A DNA stretch of 64,000 nt from Croceibacterium aestuarii. Lineage in GTDB: Bacteria; Pseudomonadota; Alphaproteobacteria; Sphingomonadales; Sphingomonadaceae. The stretch is taken from NCBI RefSeq assembly GCF_030657335.1, contig NZ_CP131039.1:1442501-1506500 (forward strand), given 5' to 3'. Below the pieces are notes generated by a model. That model was not told the origin of the DNA and made no database searches. It was given only the letters and a program-made list of their open reading frames with translations. Positions 24,310 to 62,300 of the stretch are shown in pieces. The position numbers and the translations under genes are program-made. Position 1 is the stretch's first letter. Each line of letters opens with the position of its first letter.

Positions 24310-24317
24310 TTTCAGGT

Positions 24318-26108
<1,791 letters not shown>

Positions 26109-26130
26109 CGCGTCTCTCCTGGTTCCGCGC

Positions 26131-29591: not shown

Positions 29592-29660
29592 GGAGTGAAA
29601 GCCTCTCTGATGGGCGCGGGGAATCGGCCCGCGTCGGGATATTCCCTATAGGTGCGTGAA

Positions 29661-29676: not shown

Positions 29677-29736
29677 GCGATTTTTGCGGCACAGTGCGAT
29701 TCGCGCGACCGGTTGCTGTCGCGTGAGGAGCGATGC

Positions 29737-33582: not shown

Positions 33583-33691
33583 TCCGTTATCCCGTGCTGC
33601 GCCGAACCGAGATCGCGCGCCTTTCGGCGCGCGAGCCGGGGGCCTCTAGGCAAAGCCGCCGTTCGAGGCAATGCGACCGTCTCGGGTGAAA

Positions 33692-36912: not shown

Positions 36913-36995
36913 TCCGGGAGCCTCGAGTGAAAGTACCGGCGATCGTCGCTCAGCTTGCGGTGCCCTCTAGCAGCCGAACCGGCGGATGGAAAAGT

Positions 36996-37011
36996 AGTTG
37001 CATAAGAAACT
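36996..37011. promoter_or_regulatory. Imperfect palindrome in the divergent E1/dioxygenase promoter region (candidate operator)
   Basis: AGTTGCATAAGAAACT is 12/16 symmetric and sits in the 257-base gap between the E1 gene and the intradiol dioxygenase gene. The AGTTGCA..AACT shape is like MarR-family sites. No MarR gene is in the window, so the assignment is weak. Nothing else in this gap stands out except ribosome-binding sites. Confidence 0.3.
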
Positions 37012-37169
37012 CGGCCAATCGGACTTGCCGGAATCGACATGCCGCGCGAAGGTGTGGAACGTGCAATGGAAACGGTGATGGCGAAATCGGACCGTTTGCC
37101 GCGCAAGGTTCGAACAAGCTGCTTCAAGCAGCAGTGTTGGGAGGGGCCGCCGAGGGAGGAGATGCTGCC

Positions 37170-39202
<2,033 letters not shown>

Positions 39203-39248: not shown

Positions 39249-39262
39249 CGATAGCGCTACCA
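39249..39262. promoter_or_regulatory. LacI-type operator upstream of galM-GH51 (imperfect xyl-box)
   Basis: CGATAGCGCTACCA matches 12 of 14 bases of the palindrome TGGTAGCGCTACCA. On the minus strand it reads TGGTAGCGCTATCG and shares TGGTAGCGCTA with the box before the TonB receptor. It lies 77 bases before the epimerase start and 31 bases upstream of the FadR-type box. Confidence 0.55.
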
Positions 39263-47047: not shown

Positions 47048-48832
47048 CTAGTGATTGTCGCGCGGCACGCCGTAGGTCTGTGCGATCCGCTGGTACTTCT
47101 CCGCCCCTTCGAGGATCGCCCCGCTGTCGAGCTGGCCGACCAGGGCACGCTGGATTTCCTGCCACGGCGTCTGCGAGGCCGGATAGGCATAGCCTCCCCG
47201 GGCCATGAGCGCCTCGCGTCGCGCCGCCAGCTCTTCCTCGGGTATCAGCAGGTTCACTTCGCCCTTGCCGAGATCGATCCGCAGCCGGTCGCCCGTCTCG
47301 ACCAGCGCGAGCCCGCCGTTGGCGGCCGCTTCGGGCGAGGCGTTGAGGATCGAGGGGCTGGCCGAGGTGCCCGATTGCCGCCCGTCGCCGATGCACGGCA
47401 GCGCGTGGACGCCCTCGGTCAGCAGGTAGTCCGGGGCGCGCATGTTGACGACTTCGGCCGCGCCCGGATAGCCGACCGGCCCCGTGCCGCGCATGATCAG
47501 CATCGTCTGCGAAGTGATGCCGAGCGCCGGATCGTCGATCCGGCGGTGGTAGTCCTCGGGTCCGTCGAACACGACCACAGGGCCCTCGAAGGCCTCGGGA
47601 TCGTCCGGGTTCGACAGGTAGCGCTGGCGGAACTCCTCGCCGATCACGCTGGTCTTCATGATCGCCGCATCGAACAGGTTGCCGCGCAGCACGATGAAAC
47701 CGGCCTTTTCGACCAGCGGGTCGTCGAACGGCCGGATGACCTCTGTGTCGCCAACGCGGGCGTCGCGGCAGTTCTCGCCGATCGTGCGTCCGTTCACCGT
47801 GGCCGCGTCTTCGTGGATTAGGCCCTGGCCGATCAGCTGCCCGACCACCGCCGGGACACCGCCGGCGCGGAAGAAATCCTCGCCCAGGTAGTCGCCCGCC
47901 GGCTGCAGGTTGACCAGCAGCGGGACGTCGTGGCCGTGCTCCTCCCAGTCGCCGAGCGACAGCGCGACGCCGAGGTGGCGGGCCAGGGCGATCAGGTGGA
48001 CCGGGGCGTTGGTCGATCCGCCGAGCGCGGAGTTGACCGCGATGGCGTTGAGGAAGCTCTCGCGCGTCATCACGTCCGACGGCTTGAGATCCTCGGCGAC
48101 CATTTCGACGATGCGCTTGCCGGTCAGATAGGCCGCCTCCTGCCGGTCGCGATGCGGCGCCGGGATCGCCGCCGTTCCCGGCAGCATCATGCCGAGCACC
48201 TCGGCCAGCGAGTTCATCGTCGTCGCGGTGCCCATGGTGTTGCAGTAGCCGGTCGAGGGCGCCGAGCTGGCGACCAGCCGGATGAATCCCTCGTCGTCGA
48301 TCTTGCCCTCGGCGAGCAGTTCGCGCGCCTTCCACACGATCGTGCCCGAGCCGGTCCGCTTGCCCTGGTGCCAGCCGTTGAGCATCGGCCCGACCGACAG
48401 CGCGATCGCCGGGATGTTCACCGTCGCCGCGGCCATCAGGCAGGCCGGTGTCGTCTTGTCGCACCCGGTGGTCAGCACCACGCCGTCGAGCGGGTAGCCG
48501 TAGATCAGTTCGACCAGCGCGACATAGGCGAGGTTGCGGTCGAGCGCGGCGGTCGGGCGCTTGCCGGTTTCCTGGATCGGGTGGACCGGGAATTCGAGCG
48601 CGATCCCGCCCGCCTCGCGAATGCCTTCGCGGGTCCGCTCGGCGAGGACCAGGTGGTGCCTGTTGCACGGGCTCAGGTCGCTGCCGGTCTGGGCGATGCC
48701 GATGATCGGCTTGCCGCTGCGCAATTCGGCCAGGCTCAGGCCGAAATTGAGGTAGCGCTCGAGATAGAGCGCGGTCATGTCGATGTTGTCGGGATTGTCG
48801 AACCACGCGCGGCTTCGCAACTTTTGCACCAT
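47048..48832 (-). CDS. IlvD/Edd family dehydratase, probable L-arabonate dehydratase
   Basis: This 594-residue iron-sulfur dehydratase removes water from a sugar acid to give a 2-keto-3-deoxy acid. The cluster cysteines are Cys56 (DLSPCNRHH), Cys124 (TTGCDKTTP) and Cys197 (TGYCNTMGT), spaced as in L-arabinonate dehydratase. The conserved serine/lysine region [14 protein letters not shown] and [18 protein letters not shown] lies in the C-terminal half. L-arabonate is chosen over xylonate because of the surrounding arabinose genes. Its upstream region carries the FadR-type box at 48872. Confidence 0.92.
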
Positions 48833-48938: not shown

Positions 48939-50249
48939 ATGGCTCTGGCGCCGGATGGAAGTGCTGCCGTGATCTCGGCCGATGGCGGCAAGCCGATGAG
49001 CTACCGGCCGGCGCTGGCCCTGCTCGCCTCGCTGTTCTTCATGTGGGGCTTCATCACCGTCATCAACAACACGCTGCTGCCGCACCTGCGCAGCGTGTTC
49101 GAGCTCAACTATACCCAGACCACGGTCATCGAATCCGTCTGGTTCATCGCCTACGGCGTGATGGGCATGCCCTCGGCGTTCCTGATCGAGCGGACCGGAT
49201 ACAAGAAGGCGATCATCATCGGCCTCGCTGCCATGGCCGTCGGTGCGCTGTGCATGGTGCCGGCGGCCCGGCTGCCGTCCTACGGCGTGACGCTGGCGGC
49301 GCTGTTCGTCATCGCCAGCGGCATCACCTTGCTGCAGGTCGCGGCCAATCCCTACGTTGCCGTCATCGGCCCGGCGGAAAGCTCCGAATCGCGCTTGACG
49401 CTGGTCCAGGCGTTCAACTCGATGGGCACCTTCTTCGCCCCTTATTTCGGCGGCTACCTGATCCTCAGCCGGACCATCGGCGGGACCTCGCTCGAGGGCA
49501 CCGAGCTGACCGCTGCGCAGCGGCTGGCGGATGCCGAGGCGACCCAGCTGCCCTATGTCCTGGTGGCGATCGTACTGGCGGTCATCGCGGTCATTATCTG
49601 GCGCTCGCCGCTCCCCGCGCTCGGTTCGGCCACGAGCCGCGTCGCGCAGGAGGAGCGCAAGAAGCTATCGCTGTGGAGCCACCGTCATCTCGTGCTCGGC
49701 GTGCCGGCGATCTTCATCTACCTGATCGCCGAGATCGGCGTCGCCAACCTGTTCATCACCTTCGCCATCCTGCCCGACATCGCCGCGATCACCCCGGCGA
49801 CGGCGGCCAACTACCTGGTGCTGATGTGGGGCGGGATGATGGTCGGCCGCTTCGCCGGCAGCTTCCTGATGCGCCGGTTCCCTGCCGACAAGACGTTGGC
49901 CGCCTTCGCGCTGTTCGCCATGGCGGTGATGATCGGCGCGGCGACGCTGCACGGCCCGGTTGCCATGTGGTGCCTGATCCTCGTCGGGCTCGGGCATTCG
50001 ATCATGTTCCCGACCATCTTCGCGATGGCCATCAAGGGGCTCGGCCCGCTCACCGAAGAGGCCTCGGGCCTGCTCATCACCGCCATCGCCGGCGGTGCGC
50101 TGGTCGTGGTGCAGGGCTGGCTGGCCGACACCTACGGATTGCAGAACAGCTTCTGGCTGACGGTGGCCTGCGAGCTTTACGTCCTGTTCTACGCGCTCTG
50201 GGGCTCGAAGGTGCGCAACCCGCTCCCGCCGGTGGTCGAGGCCGGATAG
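48939..50249 (+). CDS. Sugar MFS transporter, FucP-like
   Basis: This 436-residue major-facilitator protein has 12 predicted TM helices and resembles the fucose/glucose/galactose:H+ symporter group. FFMWGFITVINNTLLPHLRS (about 28-47) is the family's first-helix signature. TLLQVAANPYVAVIGPAESS and QAFNSMGTFFAPYFGG mark helices 4 and 5. The ribosome-binding site GGGGAGGG precedes the ATG at 48939. It shares a divergent operator region with the arabonate dehydratase, so it probably imports L-arabinose or xylose. Confidence 0.9.
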   Translation: MALAPDGSAAVISADGGKPMSYRPALALLASLFFMWGFITVINNTLLPHLRSVFELNYTQTTVIESVWFIAYGVMGMPSAFLIERTGYKKAIIIGLAAMAVGALCMVPAARLPSYGVTLAALFVIASGITLLQVAANPYVAVIGPAESSESRLTLVQAFNSMGTFFAPYFGGYLILSRTIGGTSLEGTELTAAQRLADAEATQLPYVLVAIVLAVIAVIIWRSPLPALGSATSRVAQEERKKLSLWSHRHLVLGVPAIFIYLIAEIGVANLFITFAILPDIAAITPATAANYLVLMWGGMMVGRFAGSFLMRRFPADKTLAAFALFAMAVMIGAATLHGPVAMWCLILVGLGHSIMFPTIFAMAIKGLGPLTEEASGLLITAIAGGALVVVQGWLADTYGLQNSFWLTVACELYVLFYALWGSKVRNPLPPVVEAG

Positions 50250-50292: not shown

Positions 50293-50306
50293 AGGTAGCG
50301 CTAACA
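50293..50306. promoter_or_regulatory. LacI-type operator (xyl-box) upstream of the AraE-like transporter
   Basis: AGGTAGCGCTAACA differs at one base from the box before the TonB receptor (TGGTAGCGCTAACA). It lies 37 bases upstream of the transporter ATG in a 94-base gap. It should control the transporter-halogenase-halogenase-like operon. Confidence 0.75.
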
Positions 50307-50343: not shown

Positions 50344-51798
50344 ATGGAAACGACACGCACCAGCGTCAACATGGCGCTCATTGCAGCAATCGTCGCGGTG
50401 GCGACGATAGGCGGCTTGCTCTTCGGGTATGACAGCGGCGCGGTGAACGGCACCCAGGAAGGGCTGCGGCAGACGTTCGACCTCTCTCCGGCGGCGCTGG
50501 GGTTCACGGTCGGGTCGCTGCTGATCGGCTGCGCGGTCGGCGCCTTCTTCGCCGGGCGGCTGGCGGACGTGATCGGCCGCCGCAAGGTGATGATCATTGC
50601 CGCCCTGCTGTTCGTCCTCGGCGCGCTGGTGCAGGGCCTGACCGGAGTGCACGAGCTCTTCGTGCTGGCGCGTTTTTCCGGCGGCATGGCCGTCGGCGCC
50701 GCCAGCGTGCTCTCGCCGCTCTACATCTCCGAAGTCGCCCCGGCCAACATCCGCGGCCGGCTGACGACGGTGCAGCAGGTGATGATCATCTCCGGCCTGA
50801 CCGCCGCCTTCGTGGTCAACTATTTCCTCGCCCAGTCGGCAGGGAGCTCGCTCGGCGAGATCGGCGGAACCGTGGCTTGGCGCTGGATGTACCTGGCGCA
50901 GTCGGTCCCCGCGATCGTCTTCCTCGTCGCCCTGTTCTTCATTCCCGAAAGCCCGCGCTACCTCGTCAGCCGCGGCCACGACGAGCAGGCCCGCGGCGTG
51001 CTGACGCGGCTGTTCGGGCCCGACGAAGCGGCGCGCAAGCTCGGCGAAATCCGCGCCAGCTTCTCCGCCGACCACCGCCCGCGGCTGTCCGACGTGACCC
51101 TGCCGGGCAAGATCTTCCGCCCGATCGTGTGGGCCGGGATCATGCTGGCGACCTTCCAGCAGTTCGTCGGCATCAACATCATCTTCTATTACGGCGAAAC
51201 GCTGTGGAAGCTGGCCGGCGTGTCGGAGGAGGTGGCGCTGGAGCGCAACATCGTCTCGGGCCTGGTCTCGATCGCCGCGGTCTTCGCCGCGATCATGGTC
51301 ATCGACAAGATCGGCCGCAAGCCGCTGCTCATGATCGGCTCGGTCGGCATGGCGGTGACGCTGGGCGCGATGACCTGGGCGTTCTCCGGGGCGAGCGAGG
51401 ATGCGGCGGGCAACCTCATGCTCGATCCCAGCGTCGGCTGGGTCGCGCTGGTCGCGGCCAACCTCTACGTGATCTTCTTCAACTTCAGCTGGGGCCCGGT
51501 GATGTGGGTCATGCTGGGCGAGATGTTCCCCAACCAGATCCGCGGTTCGGCGCTGGCCGTCGCCGGCGTGGCGCAGTGGGGCGCGAACTACGCGGTGGTA
51601 CAGAGCTTCCCGTGGATGGCCGACAATTTCGGGCTGGCCTCGACGTACGCCTTCTACACCGTCAGCGCGGTGATCAGCTTCTTCCTGGTCAAGTCCTTCG
51701 TCAACGAGACCAAGGGCAAGGAGCTGGAGGAAATGGAAGGCTGGGAAGCTCCCTCGGCCGCCGGGGATGCAATTGTCCCGGCCGTCCGCGAAGGCTGA
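50344..51798 (+). CDS. Sugar porter MFS transporter (AraE/XylE-like)
   Basis: This 484-residue sugar:H+ symporter has 12 TM helices. Sugar-porter signatures are GGLLFGYDSGAVNGTQEGL in helix 1, ADVIGRRKVMI in loop 2-3, PESPRYLVSRGHDEQ after helix 6, QQFVGINIIFYYGETL in helix 7 and DKIGRKPLLMIGS in loop 8-9. The terminal KGKELEEMEGWE matches the family's ETKG-LEE end. Xylose or arabinose is the likely substrate, given the box and neighbours. It is followed 51 bases later by a tryptophan-halogenase-like gene. The start follows GAGGAGGGG. Confidence 0.94.
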   Translation: METTRTSVNMALIAAIVAVATIGGLLFGYDSGAVNGTQEGLRQTFDLSPAALGFTVGSLLIGCAVGAFFAGRLADVIGRRKVMIIAALLFVLGALVQGLTGVHELFVLARFSGGMAVGAASVLSPLYISEVAPANIRGRLTTVQQVMIISGLTAAFVVNYFLAQSAGSSLGEIGGTVAWRWMYLAQSVPAIVFLVALFFIPESPRYLVSRGHDEQARGVLTRLFGPDEAARKLGEIRASFSADHRPRLSDVTLPGKIFRPIVWAGIMLATFQQFVGINIIFYYGETLWKLAGVSEEVALERNIVSGLVSIAAVFAAIMVIDKIGRKPLLMIGSVGMAVTLGAMTWAFSGASEDAAGNLMLDPSVGWVALVAANLYVIFFNFSWGPVMWVMLGEMFPNQIRGSALAVAGVAQWGANYAVVQSFPWMADNFGLASTYAFYTVSAVISFFLVKSFVNETKGKELEEMEGWEAPSAAGDAIVPAVREG

Positions 51799-51849: not shown

Positions 51850-53373
51850 GTGAGCAATCCCGACCGCAAGCCCGTTCGCGTCGTCGTCCTCGGCGGCGGT
51901 ACCGCCGGATGGATGAGCGCGGCCGGGCTGGCCGGGCTGCTCGGCCCGCTGGTCGAAGTGACGCTGGTCGAGAGCGAGGATATCGGCATCGTCGGCGTCG
52001 GCGAAGCCACCTTGCCGCACATCCGCGGCTACGTGGAACGGCTCGGCATCGACGAGGCCGCGTTCATGCAGGCGACCCATGCGACCTACAAGCTGGGCAT
52101 AGACTTCCGCGATTTCGGGCGGATCGGCGAAAGCTACGTCCACCCTTTCGGCACCTTCGGCGAGGAAGTCGCCGGCGTCCCCTTCCACCACTACTGGCTC
52201 GAAATGCAGCGCCAGGGCCGGGCGGACGAGATCGGCAGCTACTCGCTGGCCGTCACGGCGGCGCTGGAGAACAAGTTCCGCCCGCCGACCACCGATGCCA
52301 GCCTGACCTCGACCTACGGCTACGCCTACCAGTTCGACGCCACGCTGTTCGGGCCCTTCCTGCGCGAGCACGCGAGGAAGCTCGGCGTTGCGCGGATCGA
52401 GGGCAAGGTGGTCGAAGTGAAGCAGGACGGCGAGAGCGGCGACGTCACCGCGCTGGTGCTCGAAAATGGGCAGCAAATCGCCGGCGACCTGTTCGTCGAC
52501 TGCTCGGGCTTCCGCGCGCTGATGATCGGCGGCACGCTGGAGGAGGAATGGGAAGACTGGTCGCAGTGGCTGCCGTGCGACCGGGCCGCGGCGATGCCGT
52601 GCGAGCACGTTCGCGAGGAAATCCATCCCTACACGACCGCCATCGCCATGCCGGCAGGCTGGCGCTGGCGCATCCCGCTGCAGCACCGGATCGGCAACGG
52701 GTACGTCTTTTCAAGTTCCTTCCTGTCCGAGGACGAGGCCTGTGCGGTCATCGCCGGGGCGGCGGAAGGAACCCGGCTGGCCGACCCGCGGGTGCTGCGC
52801 TTCCGCGCCGGGCGGCGCAGGGCGAGCTGGAACCGCAACGTCATTGCCGTGGGCCTCTCCAGCGGCTTCCTCGAACCGCTCGAATCGACTTCGATCTATC
52901 TGGCGCAGATGGCGGTGACCTACCTCCTCGAACTGTTCCCCGAAGGCGGCCGGATCGATCCGCGCGATCGCGACGAATTCAACCGCCTGGTCGACATGGA
53001 ATACGACCGGGTGCGCGACTTCCTGATCCTCCACTACCATGCCACGACGCGCGACGATTCCGAGTTCTGGAACCACGTGCGCACGATGCGGGTGCCGGAT
53101 TCGCTGCAGGAGAAGATGACTCTCTGGCGCGAGACCGGGCGGGTCGAGAAATACTCCGACGGACTGTTCTACGACGCCTCGTGGATCGCGGTCTATCTCG
53201 GCCAGGGATTGCTGCCCGAGTGCCACGATCCGCGCACGCGTCTGCCCGACCCGGACCGGATCGCGCGTGCGCTGGGTTCGCTGCAGCAGGCGATCCGCGA
53301 CGAGACCGCGGCGATGCCGGGCCACCGCGACTTCCTGATGTCGCGTGCCGAGCGGCTGGCGGCAGCGCCATGA
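51850..53373 (+). CDS. Tryptophan halogenase family flavoprotein (1 of 3 intact)
   Basis: This 507-residue flavin-dependent halogenase-like protein starts at GTG. It has the FAD loop GGGTAGWM (15-22), the halogenase lysine context ATYKLGIDF with Lys81, the WxWxIP motif WRWRIP (271-276) and the EPLEST segment that holds the second catalytic residue. FHHYWL and DLFVDCSGFR are other family segments. Halogenation of tryptophan is not implied; relatives sit beside TonB receptors in glycan-uptake loci and have unknown substrates. It follows the AraE-like transporter and overlaps a degenerate paralogue (ATGA). Confidence 0.9.
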   Translation: MSNPDRKPVRVVVLGGGTAGWMSAAGLAGLLGPLVEVTLVESEDIGIVGVGEATLPHIRGYVERLGIDEAAFMQATHATYKLGIDFRDFGRIGESYVHPFGTFGEEVAGVPFHHYWLEMQRQGRADEIGSYSLAVTAALENKFRPPTTDASLTSTYGYAYQFDATLFGPFLREHARKLGVARIEGKVVEVKQDGESGDVTALVLENGQQIAGDLFVDCSGFRALMIGGTLEEEWEDWSQWLPCDRAAAMPCEHVREEIHPYTTAIAMPAGWRWRIPLQHRIGNGYVFSSSFLSEDEACAVIAGAAEGTRLADPRVLRFRAGRRRASWNRNVIAVGLSSGFLEPLESTSIYLAQMAVTYLLELFPEGGRIDPRDRDEFNRLVDMEYDRVRDFLILHYHATTRDDSEFWNHVRTMRVPDSLQEKMTLWRETGRVEKYSDGLFYDASWIAVYLGQGLLPECHDPRTRLPDPDRIARALGSLQQAIRDETAAMPGHRDFLMSRAERLAAAP

Positions 53374-54818
53374 GCGAGCCGCGCGAACTTCCGGCCCGGA
53401 TCGTCGTCGCGGGCGACGGTCCGCTTGGCGTACTTGCCGCGATCGGCCTGCGCCGGGCCTTGCCGACCACCGAGCTGCTGGTCCTCGCCCTTCCGCCCGA
53501 TCCCGGCGCGTTCGCCGAGCGTATCGGCACCGCCTTGCCCTTCACCAACCGCCTCCACGACCGCCTGCAGGTCGGCGAGGACGATCTTGTGCGCAAGGCC
53601 GGGGCGAGCCACCGGCTGGTCATGCGCTATTTCGGCGGCGGCGGGCCGGGACAGCAGGGTGCCGCCGGTTACGGGGCGGCGGTCGACCCGGCGATGGCCA
53701 CGGCTTTCGCCAGGGAATGGGGCGGCGGTCCGCGCAACGCCGGGACCGCCGCGCCGCCGCGTTCGCTCGGCGAGGTTCTCGCTGCGGCAGGCCGCTTCGC
53801 GCCGCCGCAGGGCGAAGCGGAGTCTCCGCTGGCGGACCTCGATTACGCCCTGCGCTGGAACGTGCCGGCATACCGCGAACTGCTGGTCGGGATCGCCGCG
53901 CAGCTCGGGGTTCAGCACGCCCGGGTCGATATTCGCGGCTTCAGGCCGGACGGCGAAGGCGGTATCGCTGCCTTGGTCGCAGAAGGCGTGGGCGAGATCC
54001 CCGGCGATCTGTTCGTCGACTGCACCGGTTCGCGCGCGCTCCTTCATTCGCATCTGCCCGAAGCGCGGCAGATCGACTGGCACGCCATGCACCCCGTGCG
54101 GCGGATCGCGATGGCGGAAGCAGGGCGGCCGGTCCTGGCCTTGGAGGACCGTGCTGCGTTTACCCCGCTGGGCTGGCGGTGGGATCTCGCCGGGCGGGAC
54201 GGTCTGCAGACGATCCTCGGCATTGCCGGAGAGGCGGGCGACGAGGCGATTTCCGCCGCGCTGGGCGAGCCCCCCGCCGCGATCGTTCCCTTTTCGCCGG
54301 GGCGGGCCGAAGCGCCGTGGCTCGGCAACGTCGTGGCCCTCGGCGATGCCGCGGCCCGGATCGAGCCGCTCGGCGGCATTGCCCAGGACCTGGCCCACCG
54401 CCAGCTTGCTCTGCTCCTCGAGCTTCTCCCCGGACGCACCGTCGATGCTGCGGAGCGTGCCGAATTCAACCGCCGCGCCGCACTGATGGCGGACCGCGCC
54501 GCCGACTGGGTCGCGGTGCACTATGCGGCGCCCGCTGCCGGGGAGCTGTTCCCGCATCTGTGGCGCTCGCCCGAGCTCGAGCGCGCTCTCGACCAGTACG
54601 TGCGCCGCGGCCGGACCCCGTTCGCCGAGGAAGCGCCCATGCTGGTGCAAGAGTGGGGCGCGCTGCTCCAGGCGCTCGGCGTGCCCTCGGGAGAGAGCCC
54701 GCTGACCGCTGCGGCAGCCGGAGATGAAAACGATGGCGGACGGCACTTTGCCGCCCGGGCAGAGGCGGCGCTCGCCGCCGCGCCGCCCTATGCGGAGTGG
54801 GTGCAGGAGCTGCTTTGA
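53370..54818 (+). CDS. Degenerate tryptophan-halogenase-like protein
   Basis: This 482-residue protein follows the halogenase with an ATGA overlap and keeps the family layout but not the active site. The FAD loop is GDGPLG in place of GGGTAG. The residue aligned with the catalytic lysine is Arg82 (ASHRLVMRYF against ATYKLGIDF). WxWxIP has become WRWDLA (269-274), and EPLEST is EPLGGI (332-337). DLFVDCTGSR (213-222) is still clear. It probably lacks halogenase activity and may be a partner or a repurposed flavoprotein. The true family may also be called FAD-dependent oxidoreductase. Confidence 0.75.
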   Translation: MSEPRELPARIVVAGDGPLGVLAAIGLRRALPTTELLVLALPPDPGAFAERIGTALPFTNRLHDRLQVGEDDLVRKAGASHRLVMRYFGGGGPGQQGAAGYGAAVDPAMATAFAREWGGGPRNAGTAAPPRSLGEVLAAAGRFAPPQGEAESPLADLDYALRWNVPAYRELLVGIAAQLGVQHARVDIRGFRPDGEGGIAALVAEGVGEIPGDLFVDCTGSRALLHSHLPEARQIDWHAMHPVRRIAMAEAGRPVLALEDRAAFTPLGWRWDLAGRDGLQTILGIAGEAGDEAISAALGEPPAAIVPFSPGRAEAPWLGNVVALGDAAARIEPLGGIAQDLAHRQLALLLELLPGRTVDAAERAEFNRRAALMADRAADWVAVHYAAPAAGELFPHLWRSPELERALDQYVRRGRTPFAEEAPMLVQEWGALLQALGVPSGESPLTAAAAGDENDGGRHFAARAEAALAAAPPYAEWVQELL

Positions 54819-55132
54819 GGCCCTTGCACCGGCGCGGGTCGAGCGCGGCGGACAAAGCACTTTCCTACACGGCGGCAATCTGCCTAAGTCCCGCGTATGC
54901 GCGTCGCCCTGCCTCTTTTGCCGCCACACTCGGCTAAATGTGTTCAGGGGGCGGCATCGCAGTTCGCGCGATTTTTTTTCGCACTCCGCTATGAGTAACC
55001 CTGCGGATAGGCGATGATTACAAGCTCAAGGCATTGAAAGTATTGTATTTGCAGGATTCCGGACAAGGTTACACCAGTAAACTGGCGTAACCCTGCGCTG
55101 CCCCGCCGGCGGAGGCAGAGTGCCGATTTGGC
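54819..55132. other. 314-base intergenic region between convergent genes, with two hairpins
   Basis: There is no coding sequence here that I can support. A weak hairpin, atcgc-agttcgc-gcgat (54956-54972), runs into eight T residues (to about 54979) and may terminate the plus-strand halogenase operon. A strong inverted repeat, GGTTACACCAGT-aa-ACTGGCGTAACC (55067-55092, one mismatched pair), lies 41 bases after the end of the minus-strand cupin gene. It has no clear T run on either side. The rest has lower GC than its surroundings (about 55020-55070). Confidence 0.6.
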
Positions 55133-56146
55133 CTAGCCGGCAATTTGCCGCAGCATGGCCCTCATCTGCGCAAAGAGGCCCTCGCTCGCGGGCGAGAGGA
55201 TGCCCTTGGCGTGAGCGGGCAGGTGCGCGGCGGGATCGCCGTTGCTCTCGAACACGTAGTGGTCGAGCATCATGCGCCAGACGTCCCGGTCTTGCGGCGG
55301 CAGGTGGCGGAACGCGTAGATCGCGTGGAGCAGCGCGTCGTAAGGCGGCGCGATGCCCGGCGGGCTGTCGTTCCACCAGTAGTTGACGAGGATCGAGACG
55401 GGCTCGAGCGATTCCACCCCGTGCCACCAGGTGTAGGGAATGTAGAGCGCGTCGCCCGGCTCCAGAGTCGTCTGCTGTGCATGCTCCCAGGCCTCGGCGA
55501 AGCGCGGATAGCGCGCCAGATCGGGGGCGTGCGGATCGACCATGCTCACCGGTGTGCCCGCCGGGGTCAGCTCGAAGGGACCGGCATAGAGATTGGCAAG
55601 CTGCTCGGGCGGGAACAGCGTGAAGCGCCGCCGCCCGGCCACGCAGCAGGCCACGTTCTCCTTCACGTCGTAATGCGGCGCGACGCGGATGCGATTGCCG
55701 ATCCAGATGCGCGCGGCCACCTCGGGCAGCAGGGCGAGCCGGTTCGCCTCGGCAAACGCGGGCAGCACGTCGGGTATGACCTCGGACTGCACCGCGAACG
55801 CGGGCGGATCGCTGATCTCCTTCGCGGCGAGCAGGTCGCGCAGGAAATCCTCGAGGCGGCCCTTGCCTTGGCGGAAATTGAAGCCGGTCAGGTCGCTGTT
55901 GTAGAAGAAGCGGCCGTCCTCCTCCGGCGGTGCGGCGATCGCCACGACCGGCCGGCGCGGAGCGCATTCCACGAGGTATTCGGCGATCGCCTCGTCGCCC
56001 TCTCGGGCGGCTGCGACCGCCGGCCAGTCGCAGACCAGACCGCGCATGACCACCGGCTTGCGGGCCGCGCGAATCTGCGCGTGGAACCGTGTGGCATCGA
56101 CGCCCGGCACTTCCTCGACCGCGGGCGGCTGGGGCAGTGCGGTCAT
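55133..56146 (-). CDS. Cupin-like (JmjC/cupin_8) domain protein
   Basis: This 337-residue protein of the JmjC-like 2-oxoglutarate oxygenase fold has the metal triad His158-x-Asp160 in VAPHYDVKENV and His242 in YTWWHGVESL. GRRRFTLFPPEQLANLYAGP (171-190) is a strong family signature. Such proteins hydroxylate side chains or bind metal only. Genes of this type repeatedly accompany TonB receptors and halogenase-like proteins in sphingomonads and Caulobacter. Its ATG overlaps the stop of the upstream halogenase-like gene (ATGA), making it the last gene of a three-gene operon. Confidence 0.88.
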   Translation of the reverse strand: MTALPQPPAVEEVPGVDATRFHAQIRAARKPVVMRGLVCDWPAVAAAREGDEAIAEYLVECAPRRPVVAIAAPPEEDGRFFYNSDLTGFNFRQGKGRLEDFLRDLLAAKEISDPPAFAVQSEVIPDVLPAFAEANRLALLPEVAARIWIGNRIRVAPHYDVKENVACCVAGRRRFTLFPPEQLANLYAGPFELTPAGTPVSMVDPHAPDLARYPRFAEAWEHAQQTTLEPGDALYIPYTWWHGVESLEPVSILVNYWWNDSPPGIAPPYDALLHAIYAFRHLPPQDRDVWRMMLDHYVFESNGDPAAHLPAHAKGILSPASEGLFAQMRAMLRQIAG

Positions 56147-57678
56147 GCGATGCGCCGCTCATCCGCCGGTATCGCCGAACCGTTTGCGGCGAGGAACTGG
56201 TCCTGGGTCGGCATCTGCTGCGCCGTCTGCGCCACGACCTCGCGGATGTGCGCCAGCCGCTTGCGCGTTTCCGCGTCGGGCAGGAGGTCGGCGGCGGGGT
56301 GGTATCCGCCGGCCTCGACCCCCTGTCCGACCAGGACCGACAGCCAGCTCGTCTCGGTGAAGAGCTCGTTATGCTCGCGGAATATCCGCCCCGAGGAACG
56401 GAACATCGCCAGCTTCTCCGCCAGCCCCTTCGGCGGGGCGAGGTTGCGGCAATAATCCCAGAACGGCGAATCGTCTCGCTTCGTCGCGTTGTAATGCAGC
56501 AGCAGGAAGTCGCGGATGTCGACGTAGTCGCGCAGCGTCTCGTCGTTGAAGCGCTCGATTTCCCGCGTTCCGAACGCCCGGCTCGGGAACAGCGCCAGCA
56601 GCCGCGCGATGGCCGCCTGGACCAGATGGATTGCCGTCGACTCAAGCGGCTCGAGAAAGCCCCCGGCAAGGCCGAGGGCGACCACGTTCTTCTCCCAGGC
56701 CCGGGCCCGGCGCCCCGCCGTAAAGCGCAGTTGGTTCGGCTCGGCCAGCGGCTCGCCGTCGAGGTTGGCGAGCAGCAGGCCGGTCGCTTCGTCCTCGCTC
56801 ATGTACTGCGAGCAATAGACATGACCGTTGCCGATCCGGTGCTGCAGCGGGATGCGCCATTGCCACCCGGCCGGCCGCGCCGTCGAACGGGTCAGCGTTT
56901 CGCGATCACCGGCCAGCGTGCAGGGTATGGCGACGGCACGATCGCACGGCAGCCACTCGCTCCAGTCGGTGAACGGCACGCCAAGTTCCTGCCCGATCAG
57001 CAACGCGCGGAAACCCGAGCAGTCGATGAAAAGCTCGCCTTCCACTCTTGCGCCGCTTTCTAGCACCACGGCCGTAACGAAGCCGCTCTCACCATCGCGC
57101 TCGACCGAAGTGATCCTGCCTTCGGTCCGCTTCACGCCCTGGCGCTCTGCCCGCCCGCGCAGGTAGCGGGCATAGCGCCCGGCATCGAACTGGAAGGCAT
57201 AGGCGAGCTTGCTCAGCGGCGAACGGGGATTGTCGCGGGCCGGCCACGCCATCTTTCCCGCCTTCCCGGCAGCGACTGCGATCGAATATTCGTCCAGCTC
57301 GCTGGAATCGCCGAGCGAGCGGCCCTTGAGCCAGTGGTGGTGAAACTCGATCCCCATCATGTCCGGGCCGTAGGATCCGAACGGGTGGACATAGCGATGG
57401 CCCAGCCGCGTCCAGTCGACGAACTCGATGCCCAGCTTGTAGGTCGCATGCGTCTCGCGGACGAACTCACTCTCGTCGACCCCGAGCATCGCGTTGAACA
57501 GGTTGATCTGCGGGATCGTCGCTTCGCCGACACCGACCGTGCCGATGGCTTCGGATTCAACCAGCTCGATCGCGAGGCCGGGAAACTGGCCCATGACCTT
57601 GGACAGTGCGGCGGCGGCCATCCAGCCGGCAGTCCCGCCGCCGACAATCACGATCTTGCGAATGGGATCGCCGATCAC
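56143..57678 (-). CDS. Tryptophan halogenase family flavoprotein (2 of 3 intact)
   Basis: This 511-residue protein starts at a GTG that overlaps the stop of the next halogenase gene (GTGA). It has GGGTAGWM (13-20), Lys81 in ATYKLGIEF, WQWRIP (272-277) and the EPLEST segment, so all signature residues are kept. It also has HHHWLKGRSLGD and ELFIDCSGFR. The GTG is favoured because the upstream frame has no family-like sequence. It lies between another halogenase-like gene and the cupin gene, all coupled by four-base overlaps. The substrate is unknown. Confidence 0.9.
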   Translation of the reverse strand: MIGDPIRKIVIVGGGTAGWMAAAALSKVMGQFPGLAIELVESEAIGTVGVGEATIPQINLFNAMLGVDESEFVRETHATYKLGIEFVDWTRLGHRYVHPFGSYGPDMMGIEFHHHWLKGRSLGDSSELDEYSIAVAAGKAGKMAWPARDNPRSPLSKLAYAFQFDAGRYARYLRGRAERQGVKRTEGRITSVERDGESGFVTAVVLESGARVEGELFIDCSGFRALLIGQELGVPFTDWSEWLPCDRAVAIPCTLAGDRETLTRSTARPAGWQWRIPLQHRIGNGHVYCSQYMSEDEATGLLLANLDGEPLAEPNQLRFTAGRRARAWEKNVVALGLAGGFLEPLESTAIHLVQAAIARLLALFPSRAFGTREIERFNDETLRDYVDIRDFLLLHYNATKRDDSPFWDYCRNLAPPKGLAEKLAMFRSSGRIFREHNELFTETSWLSVLVGQGVEAGGYHPAADLLPDAETRKRLAHIREVVAQTAQQMPTQDQFLAANGSAIPADERRIA

Positions 57679-59252
57679 GAGGTCACCCCCGCCACCTCGG
57701 CCGTCCCCTGTTCGGCTTCCGCCCAGGCGCCGGCGCGGCGCAGAAACTGCTCCTGATTCGGCAGCGTATCGACCGCGCGGCGGAAATCTTGCCGCATCTG
57801 CCGCAAGGCCAGCGCGACCTTGGCCTCGTCCAGCGAGTCGACGACTGGATCCCATGCTTCGGGCCAGAGATTCTGACCGAGCATGACCGCGACCCAGCTC
57901 GTAACGCCGAACAGTTCGGCACCTTCGCGGAAAATCCGTCCGTGAAGCCGCCAGAGCTCCATCTTGCGCTTGAGGCTGTCCGGCACGTCCATGTCGCGCA
58001 CCGTGCGCCAGAACGCCGTGTCGTCCCGCTGCGTCGCCTTGTAGTGGAGGATGATGAAATCGCGTACGTCGTCGTACATCTCGCTCATGCCGCGATTGTA
58101 CTCGTCGCGTTCGGCCGGGCTGATCGGCTTGCCGGGAAACAGCGCAAGCAGGCGCTGGATGCCGTTCTGTATCAGGTGAATGCTGGTCGATTCGAGCGGC
58201 TCGAGAAAGCCCGAGGACAGTCCGAGCGCCACGACGTTGCGGTTCCAGCTGCGCGTGCGTCGCCCCGTGGCGAATCGGATGGTTCTCGGCTCGGCGAGGA
58301 TCTCACCCTCGACATTCGCGAGCAGTATCTCGCGCGCCTCATCTTCGGCCAGGAAGCTGCTGGCGAAGACGTGGCCGTTGCCCATGCGGTGCTGCAGCGG
58401 GATGCGCCATTGCCATCCGGCGCCGTGTGCGGTCGAGCGCGTGAAGGGGTCCGGCGACCCGGTGAGCGCCGTCGGCACGGCGATCGCGCGATCACAGGGT
58501 AGCCAACGGCTCCAATCGTCCCATCCGGTCTCGAGCTCCTGCTCGATCAGCAGCCCACGAAATCCCGAGCAATCGATGAACAGGTCGCCGGCAATCCGCT
58601 CGCCGCTCTCCAAGACGATTGCCGCCACGTTGCCCGTTTCGCCTTCCCTTTCAACCCCTACGATCTTCCCTTCTTTCCTGACCACGCCCTGGCGTTCCGC
58701 AACGCCGCGCAGGAAGCGAGCATAGAGCGATGCGTCGAAATGAAAGGCGTAGAAGATGTGCTGCAGCGGCGACTTCGCGTCGGGCGAGGGACGTCCGAAC
58801 CGGCGCTGTGCGGCGGCGATCGCGTTGACGCAGTAGTCGTCGATCGGCCCGGGATCGCCGATCTGCCGTTCGCGCAGCCACAATTGATGGAACGGAATGC
58901 CGTGAATATCGCTGCCGTAATTGCCGAACGGGTGCAGGTAGCGGTCTCCCTGCTTGCCCCAGTTCACGAACTCGATGCCCAGTTTGAAAGTGCCGCGGGT
59001 GGCTTTGAGGAACGCGTTTTCGTTGATATCGAGCATTCGGTTGAAATGGATGATCGGGGGAATTGTCGCTTCGCCGACACCTACCGTGCCAATGGCGTCC
59101 GACTCGACCAGCGTGATCCGGCGCCGGCCGTTGTTGAGGAAGCGCGTGAACGCCGCAGCCGCCATCCAGCCGGCCGTACCGCCGCCCACGATGACAAGAT
59201 CGCCAACTTCGGTATCGCTACCTTTTCCCCCGTAGCCGGCCGCTGCCTGCAT
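57675..59252 (-). CDS. Tryptophan halogenase family flavoprotein (3 of 3 intact)
   Basis: This 525-residue protein starts at MQAAAGYGGKGSDTEVGDLV after the site GGGAGGGGAACG. The FAD loop GGGTAGWM is at 23-30. The halogenase lysine is Lys90 in GTFKLGIEF, WQWRIP is at 280-285 and EPLEST is at 351-356. It is the first gene of the minus-strand halogenase-halogenase-cupin operon. It is divergent from the TonB receptor across a 132-base gap that carries a LacI-type box, so receptor and halogenases should respond to the same sugar. Confidence 0.92.
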   Translation of the reverse strand: MQAAAGYGGKGSDTEVGDLVIVGGGTAGWMAAAAFTRFLNNGRRRITLVESDAIGTVGVGEATIPPIIHFNRMLDINENAFLKATRGTFKLGIEFVNWGKQGDRYLHPFGNYGSDIHGIPFHQLWLRERQIGDPGPIDDYCVNAIAAAQRRFGRPSPDAKSPLQHIFYAFHFDASLYARFLRGVAERQGVVRKEGKIVGVEREGETGNVAAIVLESGERIAGDLFIDCSGFRGLLIEQELETGWDDWSRWLPCDRAIAVPTALTGSPDPFTRSTAHGAGWQWRIPLQHRMGNGHVFASSFLAEDEAREILLANVEGEILAEPRTIRFATGRRTRSWNRNVVALGLSSGFLEPLESTSIHLIQNGIQRLLALFPGKPISPAERDEYNRGMSEMYDDVRDFIILHYKATQRDDTAFWRTVRDMDVPDSLKRKMELWRLHGRIFREGAELFGVTSWVAVMLGQNLWPEAWDPVVDSLDEAKVALALRQMRQDFRRAVDTLPNQEQFLRRAGAWAEAEQGTAEVAGVTS

Positions 59253-59356: not shown

Positions 59357-59370
59357 TGGTAGCGCTAACA
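59357..59370. promoter_or_regulatory. LacI-type operator (xyl-box) between the TonB receptor and the halogenase operon
   Basis: TGGTAGCGCTAACA is, from memory, identical to the xyl-box described for the XylR-controlled xylan utilisation system of Xanthomonas campestris. It ends 14 bases before the receptor GTG start and overlaps its leader, so it supports that start over a GTG at 59334. It is 104 bases from the halogenase start. Confidence 0.8.
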
Positions 59371-59384: not shown

Positions 59385-62300
59385 GTGGCACAGCCTACGT
59401 TCGCACGCGTTTCGTTGGATTCAGATGGTAGCCGCTGGCTGCGCAACACCCTGCGGGGAGGGGCTTCGCTGCTCGCCGTCAGCTGTCTGCTGGCTTCGGG
59501 TGCAGCTTACGCCCAGGACGACCCGACAACGACCGAGACGGAAGTCGGCGGCGACGAAGCGCCGCCCGCAACGGACAATGTGATCGTTGTCACCGGCATC
59601 CGCCAATCGCTGGCGAATTCGCAGGACATCAAACGCGACGCCGATACGGTCCTCGATGCAATCACCGCGCAGGACATCGGCGCCCTTCCCGATCGGTCGG
59701 TAACCGAAGCCTTGCAGCGCGTTCCCGGGGTGGCCATCAATCGTTTCGCCGGCTCGAACGATCCGGACCACTTCTCGGTCGAAGGCTCGGGCGTGGTCGT
59801 GCGCGGCCTCAATTTCGTGCGCTCCGAATTCAACGGGCGCACCGCATTCGTCGCGGGCGTCGGCGGCCAGGCGCTCAATTTTGCCGACGTGCCCTCCGAA
59901 CTGCTCGGCTCGGTCATCATCAACAAGAATTCCACCGCGGAGATGATCGAGGGTGGCCTCGCCGGCACGGTCAACCTGAACACCCGCAAGCCGTTCGACC
60001 GCGATGGGTTCCACATCTCGTTCAGCGCGGAAGCGAACTACGGCGACCTGAGCGAGAAATGGACGCCGACCATCTCGGGGCTGATCAGCAATACCTGGGA
60101 CACGGATTCGGGCCGTTTCGGCCTCCTGGTCAGCGGCGCCTTCTCGCAGATCAAGAGCCGCGCCGACGGCATTCAGATCGCCAACTATCAGACCCGCGAC
60201 GGAGCATTTGTCGACGCCGCCAACACCGGAGGCGGCACTCAGATCTGCCGCAATCCGCTGCCGAGTTCGTCGGACACCATGACCCTGCCGCCACCGGGTG
60301 CAGCGTGCGGCTTCTTCGGCACCGCCGGGGCCGATGGTTTTGCCGACTACGCCACCTCGCAGGTGGCACCGGTGGGCGGCCAGTTCCGCACCCAGGAGTA
60401 CAACCGCAAGCGCGATGGTTTCACCGTTGCGGCGCAATGGGAAAGCCTCGATGGGGGGACCCGTGTGACGGCGGAATATATCCGTTCGCACACGACCAAC
60501 GCCTGGGGCGAATACACTTACGAAACCGCTCCCGACCTGGCCGAGTATTCGACCTACCCGCTCGGCTGCCAGCAGAACGAGGCAGGCCCGCCGACGTCGG
60601 CCGGGGATGCGACCGCGCGGGCTCAGTGCCCAGTCGGCGGTTTCGAGGACTACGTCTACGACGGGAACGGCCTGTTCCAGTCGGGCTACATCGTTAACGC
60701 CAGCAACGGCTGGCGCGGCGATCCTGCGGTTTCGCCGTACACCCCGATTGGGGGCGTGCAGCAATCGCTCGCCCGCCGCGGGGTCAGGGACGAAGTCCTC
60801 AATCAGGACTTCGGGCTAAATGTGGTATCGAAGCTGACTGATCGGCTGACGCTCGAAATCGACGGCCAATATGCCAAGTCGCACAAGCAAAACCTCGACG
60901 TCAGCGTGTTCGGATCGACCTTCGCCGACCAGGAACTCGACATTTCGGGCCAGTACCCGGTCATCATCCCGCACAAACCGCAGTTCCTTGGCTACACGTG
61001 GTCCACACCCGGGGCGGATCTCGCGAACGCCAGCGAAGCGGAATACTTCAATGATCCGCGCTTCCAGTTTTGGCGGGCAGCGATGGATCACAAGGAAGAC
61101 AGCACAGGCGACCAATATGCCATCAAGGGTGATCTCGCCTACGAATTCGACGACGATTCGTTCATTCGCCGGATCAAGGTCGGAGCGCGCTACCAAGATC
61201 GCGACCAGGTTGTTCGCTACACTACCTACAACTGGGGTATGCTGAGCGAGACGTGGTCGGGCAGCCGTCCAGTCAATTTCGAAGACACGGGGTCATCGAG
61301 CTCGGAGCGCTACAACTTCCCGAACTTCTTCCGCGGTCAAGTTCCCGGGCCTCCCGGAGCCCTTTACTACTCGGGCAACCTGATCGGCGATTACGATCAG
61401 TCGGTCGCGGACTTTCAGCAGATCCAGGACATGGCGACTGCGCTCGGCGGATCGCCGACCTGGGTGCCGTTGGCCGCCCGCAACGCGGGAACGCCCAATG
61501 CTGCAAACGCCGCCGGCTTCATTCCTCAGGATATCCAGCCTGTCGGACAAAAGGACAAAGCGGCCTACATCATGGCAAGCTTCGGCTCCGATGACGCGTT
61601 TGGCAGCGTCAGGCTCTCGGGCAACGTCGGCGTGCGCTATGTGGATACGAGCGTGACTTCTCGGGGTGAACTCGGCGTTCCGAGCCAGCAGGCGCTGAAT
61701 ATCGTCAGTTCGTATGACCAGAATTGCGCTGCTGTCGTGCCTCCGGGTGCGCCGCCGGGGACGCCTCCTTCGCGCCCTGGTGGAGCCTGTGCGCTCGGGC
61801 CCGCGGGGTACGCCGACCTTCAAGCTTTCGCCACCGGCGCGACAGCGACAAATGTGGCCAAGGCCAACTACCACTACTGGCTGCCGAGCCTTAATCTGAA
61901 GTTCGGTCTGAGCGACGAGCTGGTCCTGCGCCTTGCAGCATCGAAGGTGCTGACGCGGCCGGACAACTCGTACATTCGCAACTTCCTGACCGTCGGCTTC
62001 GATGTCGCAAGCGGGAACCTGACCGCTGAGACGGGCAACCCATACATCCGTCCGGCAACGGCCTGGCAGTTTGATGCCAGCATCGAATGGTACTTCGCCC
62101 GAGTTGGCTCGCTGACTTTCAACGGCTTCTACAAGTCGGTCGACAATTTTTTCTACCAGAACGTCTTCTCGCGCGACGTGACCAGCAACGGCGTCACCGA
62201 GAAGGTGTTCGTCCGGGGCCCCGACAATTACGATGGCACTGGCAAGATCAAGGGTTTCGAGCTGGCCTACCAGCAGACCTACGAATTCCTGCCGCAACCC

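What the first reader, a model, noticed from the sequence alone, without database searches (positions are those of the whole stretch)
51850..59252. Four halogenase-family genes and a cupin oxygenase embedded in a glycan-uptake locus
Three proteins keep every halogenase signature (GGGTAGW, YK/FKLGI, WxWRIP, EPLEST), and they are split between two operons under the same operator. No secondary-metabolite genes are near. Halogenating or oxidising a plant phenolic (for example ferulate attached to arabinoxylan), or modifying the receptor or another envelope protein, are open possibilities. The co-occurrence is known for such loci in related bacteria, but the reaction is, as far as I know, undescribed.
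Basis: partly seen in the sequence, partly recalled or inferred. Interest (0 to 1): 0.72.

Follow-up and report, generated by a model that had tools for sequence, protein, structure and literature searches.

The report
Receptor-linked halogenases with inactive partner
A bacterial xylan-uptake locus carries three intact flavin halogenase genes and a fourth, catalytically dead one; the same enzyme family sits beside outer-membrane sugar receptors in many bacteria whatever the sugar, which points away from plant phenolics and towards the receptor or another cell component as the target.

Summary
Four PF04820 genes, a Cupin_8 gene, a TIGR01782 TonB-dependent receptor (TBDR) and a GH10 xylanase form one block, with one operator before both operons. 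HAL1, HAL3 and HAL4 keep the catalytic Lys and Glu. HAL2 has lost both (R82, G335) but keeps the fold and an intact, constrained frame.

Two results go further. (1) In 145 non-redundant halogenase loci a TBDR lies within 2.5 kb in 120, while the glycan genes vary: starch 43/46, beta-glucan 9/10, xylan/cellulose 32/33. A ferulate-type substrate is unlikely for the family. (2) Of 46 loci with three or more full-length halogenases, 40 have exactly one dead copy; of 63 single-halogenase loci, none. The HAL1 clade and a dead copy co-occur in 39 loci (neither in 98), in tandem.

Best reading: BrvH/Xcc4156-like halogenases partnered with glycan TBDRs, HAL1 acting as a heteromer with dead HAL2. The substrate is unproven. 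The receptor is the best candidate, but one halogenase-free genome keeps a starch-type receptor with its conserved aromatics unchanged. New variant of a known kind.

The parts
51850..53373 (+). HAL1: active-type flavin-dependent halogenase, 507 aa (K81, E345); member of a 44-leaf clade seen in 43 loci
   Evidence: PF04820 E 2e-181; nearest solved 9luq, 6frl BrvH, 6y1w Xcc4156; motif positions; tree
53370..54818 (+). HAL2: catalytically degenerate halogenase (K to R82, E to G335), 482 aa, start overlaps HAL1 stop by 4 bp
   Evidence: PF04820 3.4e-46; motifs; dN/dS 0.13-0.43 in six comparisons; fold kept, mean pLDDT 88.7, Foldseek best 6frl BrvH
55133..56146 (-). Cupin_8 (JmjC-like) putative Fe(II)/2-oxoglutarate oxygenase, 337 aa, HxD...H = H158, D160, H242
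   Evidence: PF13621 6.5e-69; nearest solved FIH, JMJD5, JMJD7; motif positions
56143..57678 (-). HAL3: active-type halogenase, 511 aa (K81, E346); overlaps HAL4 and cupin by 4 bp with the starts chosen
   Evidence: PF04820 4.2e-185; motifs; 52% identical to HAL4
57675..59252 (-). HAL4: active-type halogenase, 525 aa (K90, E354), divergent from the TBDR
   Evidence: PF04820 1.3e-193; nearest solved 6y1w, 9luq, 6frl
59385..62780 (+). TIGR01782 TonB-dependent receptor; start chosen at GTG 59385 after GGGGGAG (the ORF tool opens it at 59334); invariant W617 and W624 at the start of a long loop
   Evidence: TIGR01782 624.9 bits, cut-off 310 (frame from 59334); AF2 model mean pLDDT 75.4; Foldseek TBDR fold; conservation
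59357..59370 (+). operator TGGTAGCGCTAACA between HAL4 and TBDR
   Evidence: recurs in relatives
50293..50306 (+). operator AGGTAGCGCTAACA before sugar MFS-HAL1-HAL2
39249..39262 (-). weaker operator copy TGGTAGCGCTATCG, 90 bp before the gene at 39340
   Evidence: could be chance on its own
50344..51798 (+). XylE-like sugar MFS transporter, first gene of the HAL1-HAL2 operon
   Evidence: PF00083 2.1e-112; NF007484 below its cut-off
48939..50249 (+). FucP/GluP-like MFS transporter
   Evidence: TIGR01272 over cut-off
62893..63963 (-). GH10 xylanase
   Evidence: PF00331 5.6e-69
47048..48832 (-). IlvD/Edd-family dehydratase
   Evidence: PF00920 2.2e-103
45949..46968 (-). putative esterase (PF00756)
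45257..45937 (+). GntR/FCD-family regulator
   Evidence: PF07729, PF00392
43983..44990 (-). GH43 glycosidase
   Evidence: PF04616 8.5e-44
40488..42050 (+). alpha-L-arabinofuranosidase (Alpha-L-AF_C domain)
   Evidence: PF06964 1.4e-45

Best explanation
The genes form a receptor-partnered halogenase module of a xylan/arabinoxylan uptake locus. SHOWN from sequence: three intact halogenases (HAL1 and HAL4 nearest to BrvH/Xcc4156 among solved structures; HAL3 about half identical to both); one catalytically dead paralogue directly after HAL1, an arrangement that recurs in other bacteria; a FIH/JMJD5-like cupin with an intact metal triad; one operator before both operons; and, across bacteria, linkage to a TBDR whatever the glycan. 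INFERRED: HAL1 and HAL2 are made together and form a heteromer in which HAL2 binds or positions the substrate and HAL1 does the chemistry. The halogenases are cytoplasmic, take FADH2 from a general reductase elsewhere in the genome, and halogenate (probably brominate) an aromatic side chain of a protein rather than free tryptophan or a plant phenolic. The best candidate substrate is the companion TBDR before export, for example the invariant Trp pair at the start of a large predicted extracellular loop. The cupin would hydroxylate a side chain of the same or a related protein. The effect would be to tune receptor function when the glycan is present. The receptor step is the weakest link.
For: TBDR within 2.5 kb of a halogenase in 120 of 145 loci; starch 43/46, beta-glucan 9/10, xylan/cellulose 32/33. 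Own genome: only two TBDRs exceed the TIGR01782 cut-off, and both are at halogenase loci. At E <= 1e-60 the xylan-type TBDR is found in 0 of 40 genomes without halogenase and 32 of 55 with it; starch-type in 3 of 40 and 37 of 55. In the 55, 37 of 40 and 34 of 40 TBDR places have a listed halogenase within 2.5 kb. One dead copy in 40 of 46 loci with at least three full-length halogenases, in 3 of 36 two-copy loci and in 0 of 63 single-copy loci. HAL1 clade and dead copy both present in 39 loci, one alone in 4 and 4, neither in 98. A start codon for the dead gene overlaps the HAL1 stop by 4 bp in 29 of 39 pairs. HAL2 dN/dS 0.13-0.43 in six comparisons and full halogenase fold. BrvH and Xcc4156 do not halogenate free Trp, have an open site, and a peptide substrate has been proposed for them (PMC7336383 and PMC5945002, passages). 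SrpI shows the same indole-yes, free-Trp-no behaviour and brominates a Trp in a protein fusion (PMC10286304, passages). Operator pairs recur in nine relatives.
Against: No Trp column is shared by all halogenase-linked TBDR classes: W634/W641 (numbered from 59334; W617/W624 from 59385) are in 36/36 TBDRs of loci with a dead or truncated copy and 6/6 two-halogenase xylan-type ones, 83% of 12 single-halogenase beta-glucan/GH3 ones, but about 7% of 43 starch TBDRs, so they may simply bind glycan. Genome G050 has no halogenase yet keeps a starch-type TBDR that matches all ten listed conserved aromatic columns and differs at 2 of 114 conserved columns. The halogenases show no export signal by eye (no predictor was run), so the receptor would have to be modified before export. 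14 loci have no TBDR within 2.5 kb despite at least 5 kb of sequence on each side; in L057 the pair stands without a TBDR. In L016 and L017 the TBDR is 61-66% identical to the window's while HAL1 and HAL3 are 82-83%, so the enzymes are not tailored to one receptor sequence. The loci are not phylogenetically independent. Heteromer formation is not shown, and the dead copies are not shown to be one clade (34 in one weakly supported group, 8 in another, 1 apart).
Confidence: 0.42

Rival explanations
1. The enzymes halogenate or oxidise a plant phenolic such as ferulate released from arabinoxylan.
For: GH10, GH43, arabinofuranosidase and a PF00756 esterase are in the locus; ORFs read as aromatic catabolism lie just upstream (not tested).
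Against: The same family sits beside TBDRs in starch (43/46) and beta-glucan (9/10) loci where phenolics are not expected. The multi-copy xylan form could still have acquired such a role.
Confidence: 0.1
2. The enzymes modify an endogenous small molecule, lipid or signal shared by glycan-responsive cells, for example an indole- or aryl-derived signal or surface lipid, and are co-expressed with receptors for ecological reasons.
For: BrvH and the Xcc halogenases act on free indole in vitro; G050 keeps the receptor without the enzyme.
Against: BrvH activity on indole is low and its authors doubt that indole is the natural substrate. It does not explain why the recurrent neighbour is a TBDR or why three or four paralogues are needed. 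Apart from TBDR, glycan enzymes, transporters, regulators, SapC, Cupin_8 and DUF6445 I saw no labelled family recurring across the glycan classes, but many neighbours were left unlabelled.
Confidence: 0.22
3. The proteins are flavin oxidases or hydroxylases in vivo, using the flavin hydroperoxide without halide, acting on the receptor, a periplasmic protein or the incoming oligosaccharide.
For: The family belongs to the wider flavin monooxygenase fold (general knowledge); a putative oxygenase (Cupin_8) is in one operon with HAL3 and HAL4 through 4-bp overlaps; many of these habitats are low in bromide (general knowledge).
Against: 258 of 301 full-length copies keep the Lys and Glu used for hypohalous acid chemistry, and close relatives brominate in vitro.
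Confidence: 0.18
4. HAL2 is merely a decaying duplicate and the block is an ordinary tandem array of halogenases.
For: Weaker PF04820 score and faster divergence: 49-55% identity to the blocks of three other genera against 69-78% for HAL1, HAL3 and HAL4.
Against: Open frame, dN/dS 0.13-0.43, one per locus in 40 of 46 multi-copy loci, tied to the HAL1 clade, overlapping start in 29 of 39, confident fold.
Confidence: 0.05

Closest known systems
BrvH (6frl, Brevundimonas) and Xcc4156 (6y1w, Xanthomonas campestris)
   Same: With 9luq the top solved relatives of HAL1 and HAL4 and of the HAL2 model by fold; same catalytic Lys/Glu motifs; similar aligned length, so no sign of the longer substrate loops of free-Trp enzymes (loops not examined one by one). 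Native substrate stated as unknown or not indole.
   Different: Characterised as single enzymes; no dead partner or receptor context in the passages I saw.
9luq, tryptophan halogenase of Pseudoalteromonas sp. L11
   Same: Best sequence match of HAL1 among solved structures.
   Different: Only the PDB title was seen; function not known to me.
Tryptophan 5/6/7-halogenases (PyrH, Thal, RebH, PrnA)
   Same: Same family and catalytic residues.
   Different: Act on free Trp in antibiotic clusters (general knowledge); HAL1 and HAL4 match them at 252-295 bits against 457-511 for the BrvH group.
Peptide and protein halogenases SrpI and MibH
   Same: Flavin halogenases that act on ribosomal peptides; SrpI also ignores free Trp and brominates indole.
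   Different: SrpI needs a leader peptide; no small ORF is widely shared by the loci here.
FIH, JMJD5 and JMJD7 protein hydroxylases
   Same: Nearest solved relatives of the cupin; HxD...H triad.
   Different: Distant matches (E 2e-17 at best); eukaryotic enzymes with other substrates.
Carbohydrate utilisation loci with TonB-dependent receptor (CUT loci) of Xanthomonas and Caulobacter
   Same: TBDR, glycosidases, inner-membrane sugar transporter, dedicated operator.
   Different: The 2007 CUT paper's main text has no mention of halogenase, SapC, cupin or Pass1 (PMC1790865, term search). That SapC, halogenase and cupin genes occur in such loci is also my recollection from papers not held here.
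Enzymes activated by dead paralogues (trypanosome AdoMetDC/prozyme and DHS)
   Same: Active and dead paralogue acting as a pair, the model proposed for HAL1-HAL2 (listing and starts of abstracts).
   Different: Unrelated fold and biology; complex not yet shown for HAL1-HAL2.

Membership tests
Flavin-dependent halogenase (PF04820), HAL1/HAL3/HAL4 | Pfam match over cut-off, GxGxxG, WxWxIP | tested here: met
Flavin-dependent halogenase (PF04820), HAL1/HAL3/HAL4 | catalytic Lys and Glu | tested here: met
   K81/E345, K81/E346, K90/E354; that these are the catalytic pair is recalled for PrnA K79/E346 and agrees with the motif alignment to BrvH/Xcc4156
Flavin-dependent halogenase (PF04820), HAL1/HAL3/HAL4 | halogenating activity with FADH2 and halide | not testable with these tools
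   no assay
Active flavin-dependent halogenase, HAL2 | catalytic Lys and Glu | tested here: not met
   R82, G335; described as a halogenase-fold pseudoenzyme
Halogenase fold, HAL2 | overall fold of the family | tested here: met
   AF2 mean pLDDT 88.7; Foldseek top hit 6frl, TM 0.84
BrvH/Xcc4156 subgroup, HAL1/HAL4 | nearest solved sequences are BrvH and Xcc4156 rather than free-Trp enzymes | tested here: met
   (9luq lies in the same group); HAL3 was not searched
BrvH/Xcc4156 subgroup, HAL1/HAL4 | indole but not free Trp halogenated | not testable with these tools
   no assay
Cupin_8 Fe(II)/2OG oxygenase | HxD...H metal triad | tested here: met
   H158, D160, H242, region aligned with FIH
Cupin_8 Fe(II)/2OG oxygenase | 2-oxoglutarate-dependent hydroxylation | not testable with these tools
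   no assay
TIGR01782 TonB-dependent receptor | score over curated cut-off, plug and barrel | tested here: met
   624.9 against 310 bits; PF07715, PF00593; fold
Glycan uptake (CUT-type) locus | TBDR, glycosidases and sugar transporter, shared operator | tested here: met
RiPP halogenase cluster | precursor peptide gene nearby | tested here: not met
   no small ORF family in more than 4 of 145 loci (BLAST E 1e-4; very short or fast-changing peptides could be missed)
Halogenase operon with its own flavin reductase | PF01613 gene in the locus | tested here: not met
   two PF01613 genes in the genome, at 44183 and 2243870, window at 1442501-1506500
Active/inactive heteromer (prozyme-like) | dead paralogue coupled to an active one | tested here: met
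Active/inactive heteromer (prozyme-like) | physical complex and activation | not testable with these tools
   monomer prediction only

The most novel reading that the evidence does not exclude
HAL1-HAL2 is a heteromeric halogenase made of an active and a conserved dead subunit that, with HAL3, HAL4 and the cupin, installs halogen and hydroxyl marks on aromatic and other residues of sugar-specific TonB-dependent receptors: a genuine, regulated protein-halogenation system controlling nutrient uptake in many Proteobacteria.
Probability: 0.25. Interest if true: 0.92.

Novelty: new variant of a known kind. Interest (0 to 1): 0.62.

Why it matters
The survey links the family to glycan TBDRs independently of the glycan, which narrows the search to a shared component and makes it directly testable by mass spectrometry of one receptor. 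The recurring dead partner might explain weak activity of single proteins in assays, and gives a simple co-expression test. If the receptor is the target, it would be halogenation used as a regulated modification of a bacterial membrane protein.

Tried and rejected
Phenolic substrate: weakened by the starch and beta-glucan loci. RiPP-type peptide substrate: searched 2952 small intergenic ORFs within 6 kb of halogenases in the 145 loci; the largest family spans 4 loci and looks antisense. Specific Trp target: compared 112 linked TBDRs with 25 from halogenase-free genomes. The W634/W641 pair is class-specific, not universal; the halogenase-free starch receptor L240 differs at only 2 of 114 conserved columns, which does not support a specific aromatic target. 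The 25 free TBDRs are mostly distant, so they are a weak control. Number of halogenases against Trp count of the receptor: weak (Spearman 0.30, n = 112, uncorrected for kinship). Flavin reductase in the locus: none. Decaying duplicate for HAL2: rejected.

Operator control: genome-wide the pattern GGTAGCGCTANC is no more frequent than its reversed control (13 matches on both strands against 11). Only the clustering of its places near this locus, and the recurrence in relatives, speak for it.

Limits: my gene caller missed or merged some halogenases (the window's HAL4 was dropped), so adjacency was recounted by base distance and halogenases recounted from all ORFs by HMM. 150 loci were scanned; three duplicates were dropped, and L014 (a flank) and L093 gave no halogenase, leaving 145; L093 does hold one beside a TBDR but stayed out of the counts. 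The 80 named loci were found with patterns that require active-site words, which favours loci with an active copy. Loci of close relatives are counted singly. Glycan class uses clustered genes whose representatives, not every member, were tested with Pfam. In the 99-genome survey at most 14 candidates per genome were scored; three key genomes were rescanned in full. The '40 without halogenase' are 28 with no match and 12 with only matches near the cut-off; G016, G060, G062 and G075 (weak or partial matches) were left out of both groups. The empty result has its positive control. One search used 137 of the halogenase places listed (the weaker rows at the end were left out and the list itself is capped) and counts G059 as a miss although its two pieces look like one gene beside a halogenase. 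In one search the start of the dead gene is the in-frame start codon nearest to the HAL1 stop, not a verified start. The tree is midpoint-rooted FastTree; support of the HAL1 clade is 0.91, of several other deep nodes 0.26-0.5. Stretches L202-L204 were fetched but not analysed.

Literature: ten searches in one open-access library; subscription papers are missing, so absence there is weak evidence. Searches returned nothing.
Full report
WHAT IS THERE. The window lies in a 3.35 Mb single-contig genome. At its right end the genes are: sugar MFS, HAL1, HAL2 on the plus strand; cupin, HAL3, HAL4 on the minus strand; then the divergent TBDR and, convergent with it, a GH10 xylanase. Upstream lie an arabinofuranosidase, GH43, an IlvD/Edd dehydratase, a PF00756 esterase and a GntR regulator. 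With the starts chosen, HAL1/HAL2, HAL4/HAL3 and HAL3/cupin each overlap by 4 bp. I place the TBDR start at GTG 59385, behind GGGGGAG, because the operator at 59357 overlaps the longer frame.

REGULATION. TGGTAGCGCTAACA lies at 59357 and a one-mismatch copy at 50293. Nine relatives with the same block (L015, L016, L017, L051-L056) have two sites each: one before the TBDR in all nine, the other before the sugar transporter in eight (in L054 it falls in an unnamed called ORF). L057, which lacks the TBDR, has none. Starch-type loci have 2 sites in 906 kb, the xylan/cellulose class 30 in 687 kb. In the own genome the pattern GGTAGCGCTANC has 13 matches on both strands against 11 for the reversed control, so it is not enriched genome-wide; but seven of its ten places lie within 1481750-1537696, and a tandem pair at 1658967/1658987 lies just before a second operon TBDR-SapC-Cupin_8-HAL. 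All five halogenases may thus be in one regulon. The operator resembles, from memory, that of Caulobacter XylR; I did not verify this.

THE FAMILY FOLLOWS THE RECEPTOR, NOT THE GLYCAN. I collected halogenase loci from relatives and 80 from public genome records, called genes, clustered them and labelled clusters with Pfam. Of 145 non-redundant loci, 120 have a TBDR within 2.5 kb (107 within 500 bp). By glycan genes near the halogenase: starch 43 of 46, beta-glucan 9 of 10, xylan/cellulose 32 of 33, GH3/GH1/GH31 only 14 of 17, none called 21 of 38, mixed 1 of 1. Of the 25 without a TBDR within 2.5 kb, 14 have at least 5 kb of sequence on each side and are real exceptions. In the window's family, 68 of 99 genomes have a PF04820 match over cut-off, a few of them weak. 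At E <= 1e-60 the window's TBDR type matches 0 of 40 genomes lacking halogenase and 32 of 55 having it; a starch-type TBDR 3 of 40 and 37 of 55. In the 55, 37 of 40 and 34 of 40 of the TBDR places have a listed halogenase within 2.5 kb. In the own genome both TBDRs over the TIGR01782 cut-off are at halogenase loci. A substrate specific to arabinoxylan is therefore unlikely for the family.

A DEAD PARTNER. Of 301 full-length halogenases 258 keep both catalytic residues; 43 lack one or both (31 lack both), and 40 of those 43 still have a GxGxx(G/A) word. Among loci, 0 of 63 with one full-length halogenase, 3 of 36 with two and 40 of 46 with three or more have a dead copy, one in each. A 44-leaf clade holding HAL1 is present in 43 loci; dead copies are in 43; both in 39, HAL1 clade only in 4, dead only in 4, neither in 98. 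Three of the four HAL1-only loci (L060, L061, L134) carry a shorter relative instead (the L061 one is PF04820 at 105.8 bits). In 37 of 40 pairings HAL1 is immediately upstream of the dead gene, and all 40 are on one strand. In 29 of 39 an in-frame start codon of the dead gene overlaps the HAL1 stop by 4 bp; in the other ten the nearest one lies within 13 bp. HAL2 evolves faster than its neighbours but under constraint (dN/dS 0.13-0.43 against 0.12-0.29 for HAL1). Its model keeps the halogenase fold with BrvH as best match. HAL1-dead pairs occur in records named Sphingomonas, Asticcacaulis, Maricaulis and Aestuariibacter among others; Gilvimarinus (L140) has a dead copy without a HAL1-clade member. 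The dead copies fall in one weakly supported group of 34, another of 8 and one apart, so a single origin is not shown. A heteromer of an active catalytic and a dead binding or regulatory subunit is the natural inference. None of the 12 papers listed of 114 holds the term flavin-dependent halogenase.

CHEMISTRY AND SUBSTRATE. HAL1 and HAL4 are closest to 9luq, BrvH and Xcc4156. The BrvH and Xcc4156 papers state that native substrates are unknown, that free Trp is not accepted, that the site is open, and that a peptide substrate is possible (passages). SrpI has the same in vitro behaviour and brominates a Trp within a protein fusion (passages). The cupin's nearest solved relatives include FIH, JMJD5 and JMJD7, known as protein hydroxylases (general knowledge), and its metal triad is intact. 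A protein substrate fits, and the receptor is the most constant neighbour. In the TBDR model W617 and W624, invariant in the 24-row alignment, lie at the start of a roughly 105-residue segment between barrel strands 594-612 and 717-735, most likely an extracellular loop.

EVIDENCE AGAINST THE RECEPTOR. The Trp pair is absent from most starch-type TBDRs and present in single-halogenase beta-glucan ones. The halogenase-free genome G050 keeps a starch-type TBDR with the conserved aromatics unchanged. In L016 and L017 the TBDR seems to have been exchanged while the halogenases stayed. These results point away from one fixed target residue, or allow that modification is dispensable. I therefore give the receptor-substrate reading about one in three or four, and the receptor-partnered module with an active/dead pair a much higher chance.

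VERDICT. The finding is real. The phenolic idea is not supported. The locus is a xylan version of a widespread receptor-linked halogenase module, whose multi-copy form contains a recurrent dead halogenase that I have not found described in the library searched. It is a new variant of a known kind, with an open, testable substrate question.

Noticed in passing
window 20351-39202: Genes read as aromatic catabolism (a PobA-like hydroxylase at 38030-39202 and a ring-cleavage dioxygenase-like gene at 37170-38033) adjoin the arabinoxylan genes that start at 39340. Read from ORFs only.
   Followed up: no
L013 4067-10591 (own genome 1655001-1675000): Second module TBDR-SapC-Cupin_8-HAL with two tandem operator copies 80 and 100 bp before the TBDR.
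   Followed up: partly
L071, L079, L086: Single halogenases with no TBDR called in the fetched stretch (7-8 kb on each side); L071 and L079 also hold Edd-like dehydratase and glucokinase-cluster genes: exceptions to the receptor rule.
   Followed up: no
L016 and L017: Receptor only 61-66% identical to the window's while HAL1 and HAL3 are 82-83%: possible receptor exchange within a conserved block.
   Followed up: partly
L057: HAL1-dead-HAL pair with sugar transporter but no TBDR and no operator in 18 kb; the same genome has TBDR-HAL neighbours on other contigs.
   Followed up: partly
L179 8047-8739: DUF6445 (PF20043): its cluster has members in 12 of the 150 scanned loci; function unknown.
   Followed up: no
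starch-type loci such as L085, L099, L103: A second, divergent halogenase (about 430 bits) lies at the far end of the GH13-GH97 operon and keeps the catalytic residues.
   Followed up: partly
L115, L125: Records titled Arthrobacter and Bacillus hold halogenase-TBDR loci like those of sphingomonads, so the names may be wrong or the records contaminated.
   Followed up: no
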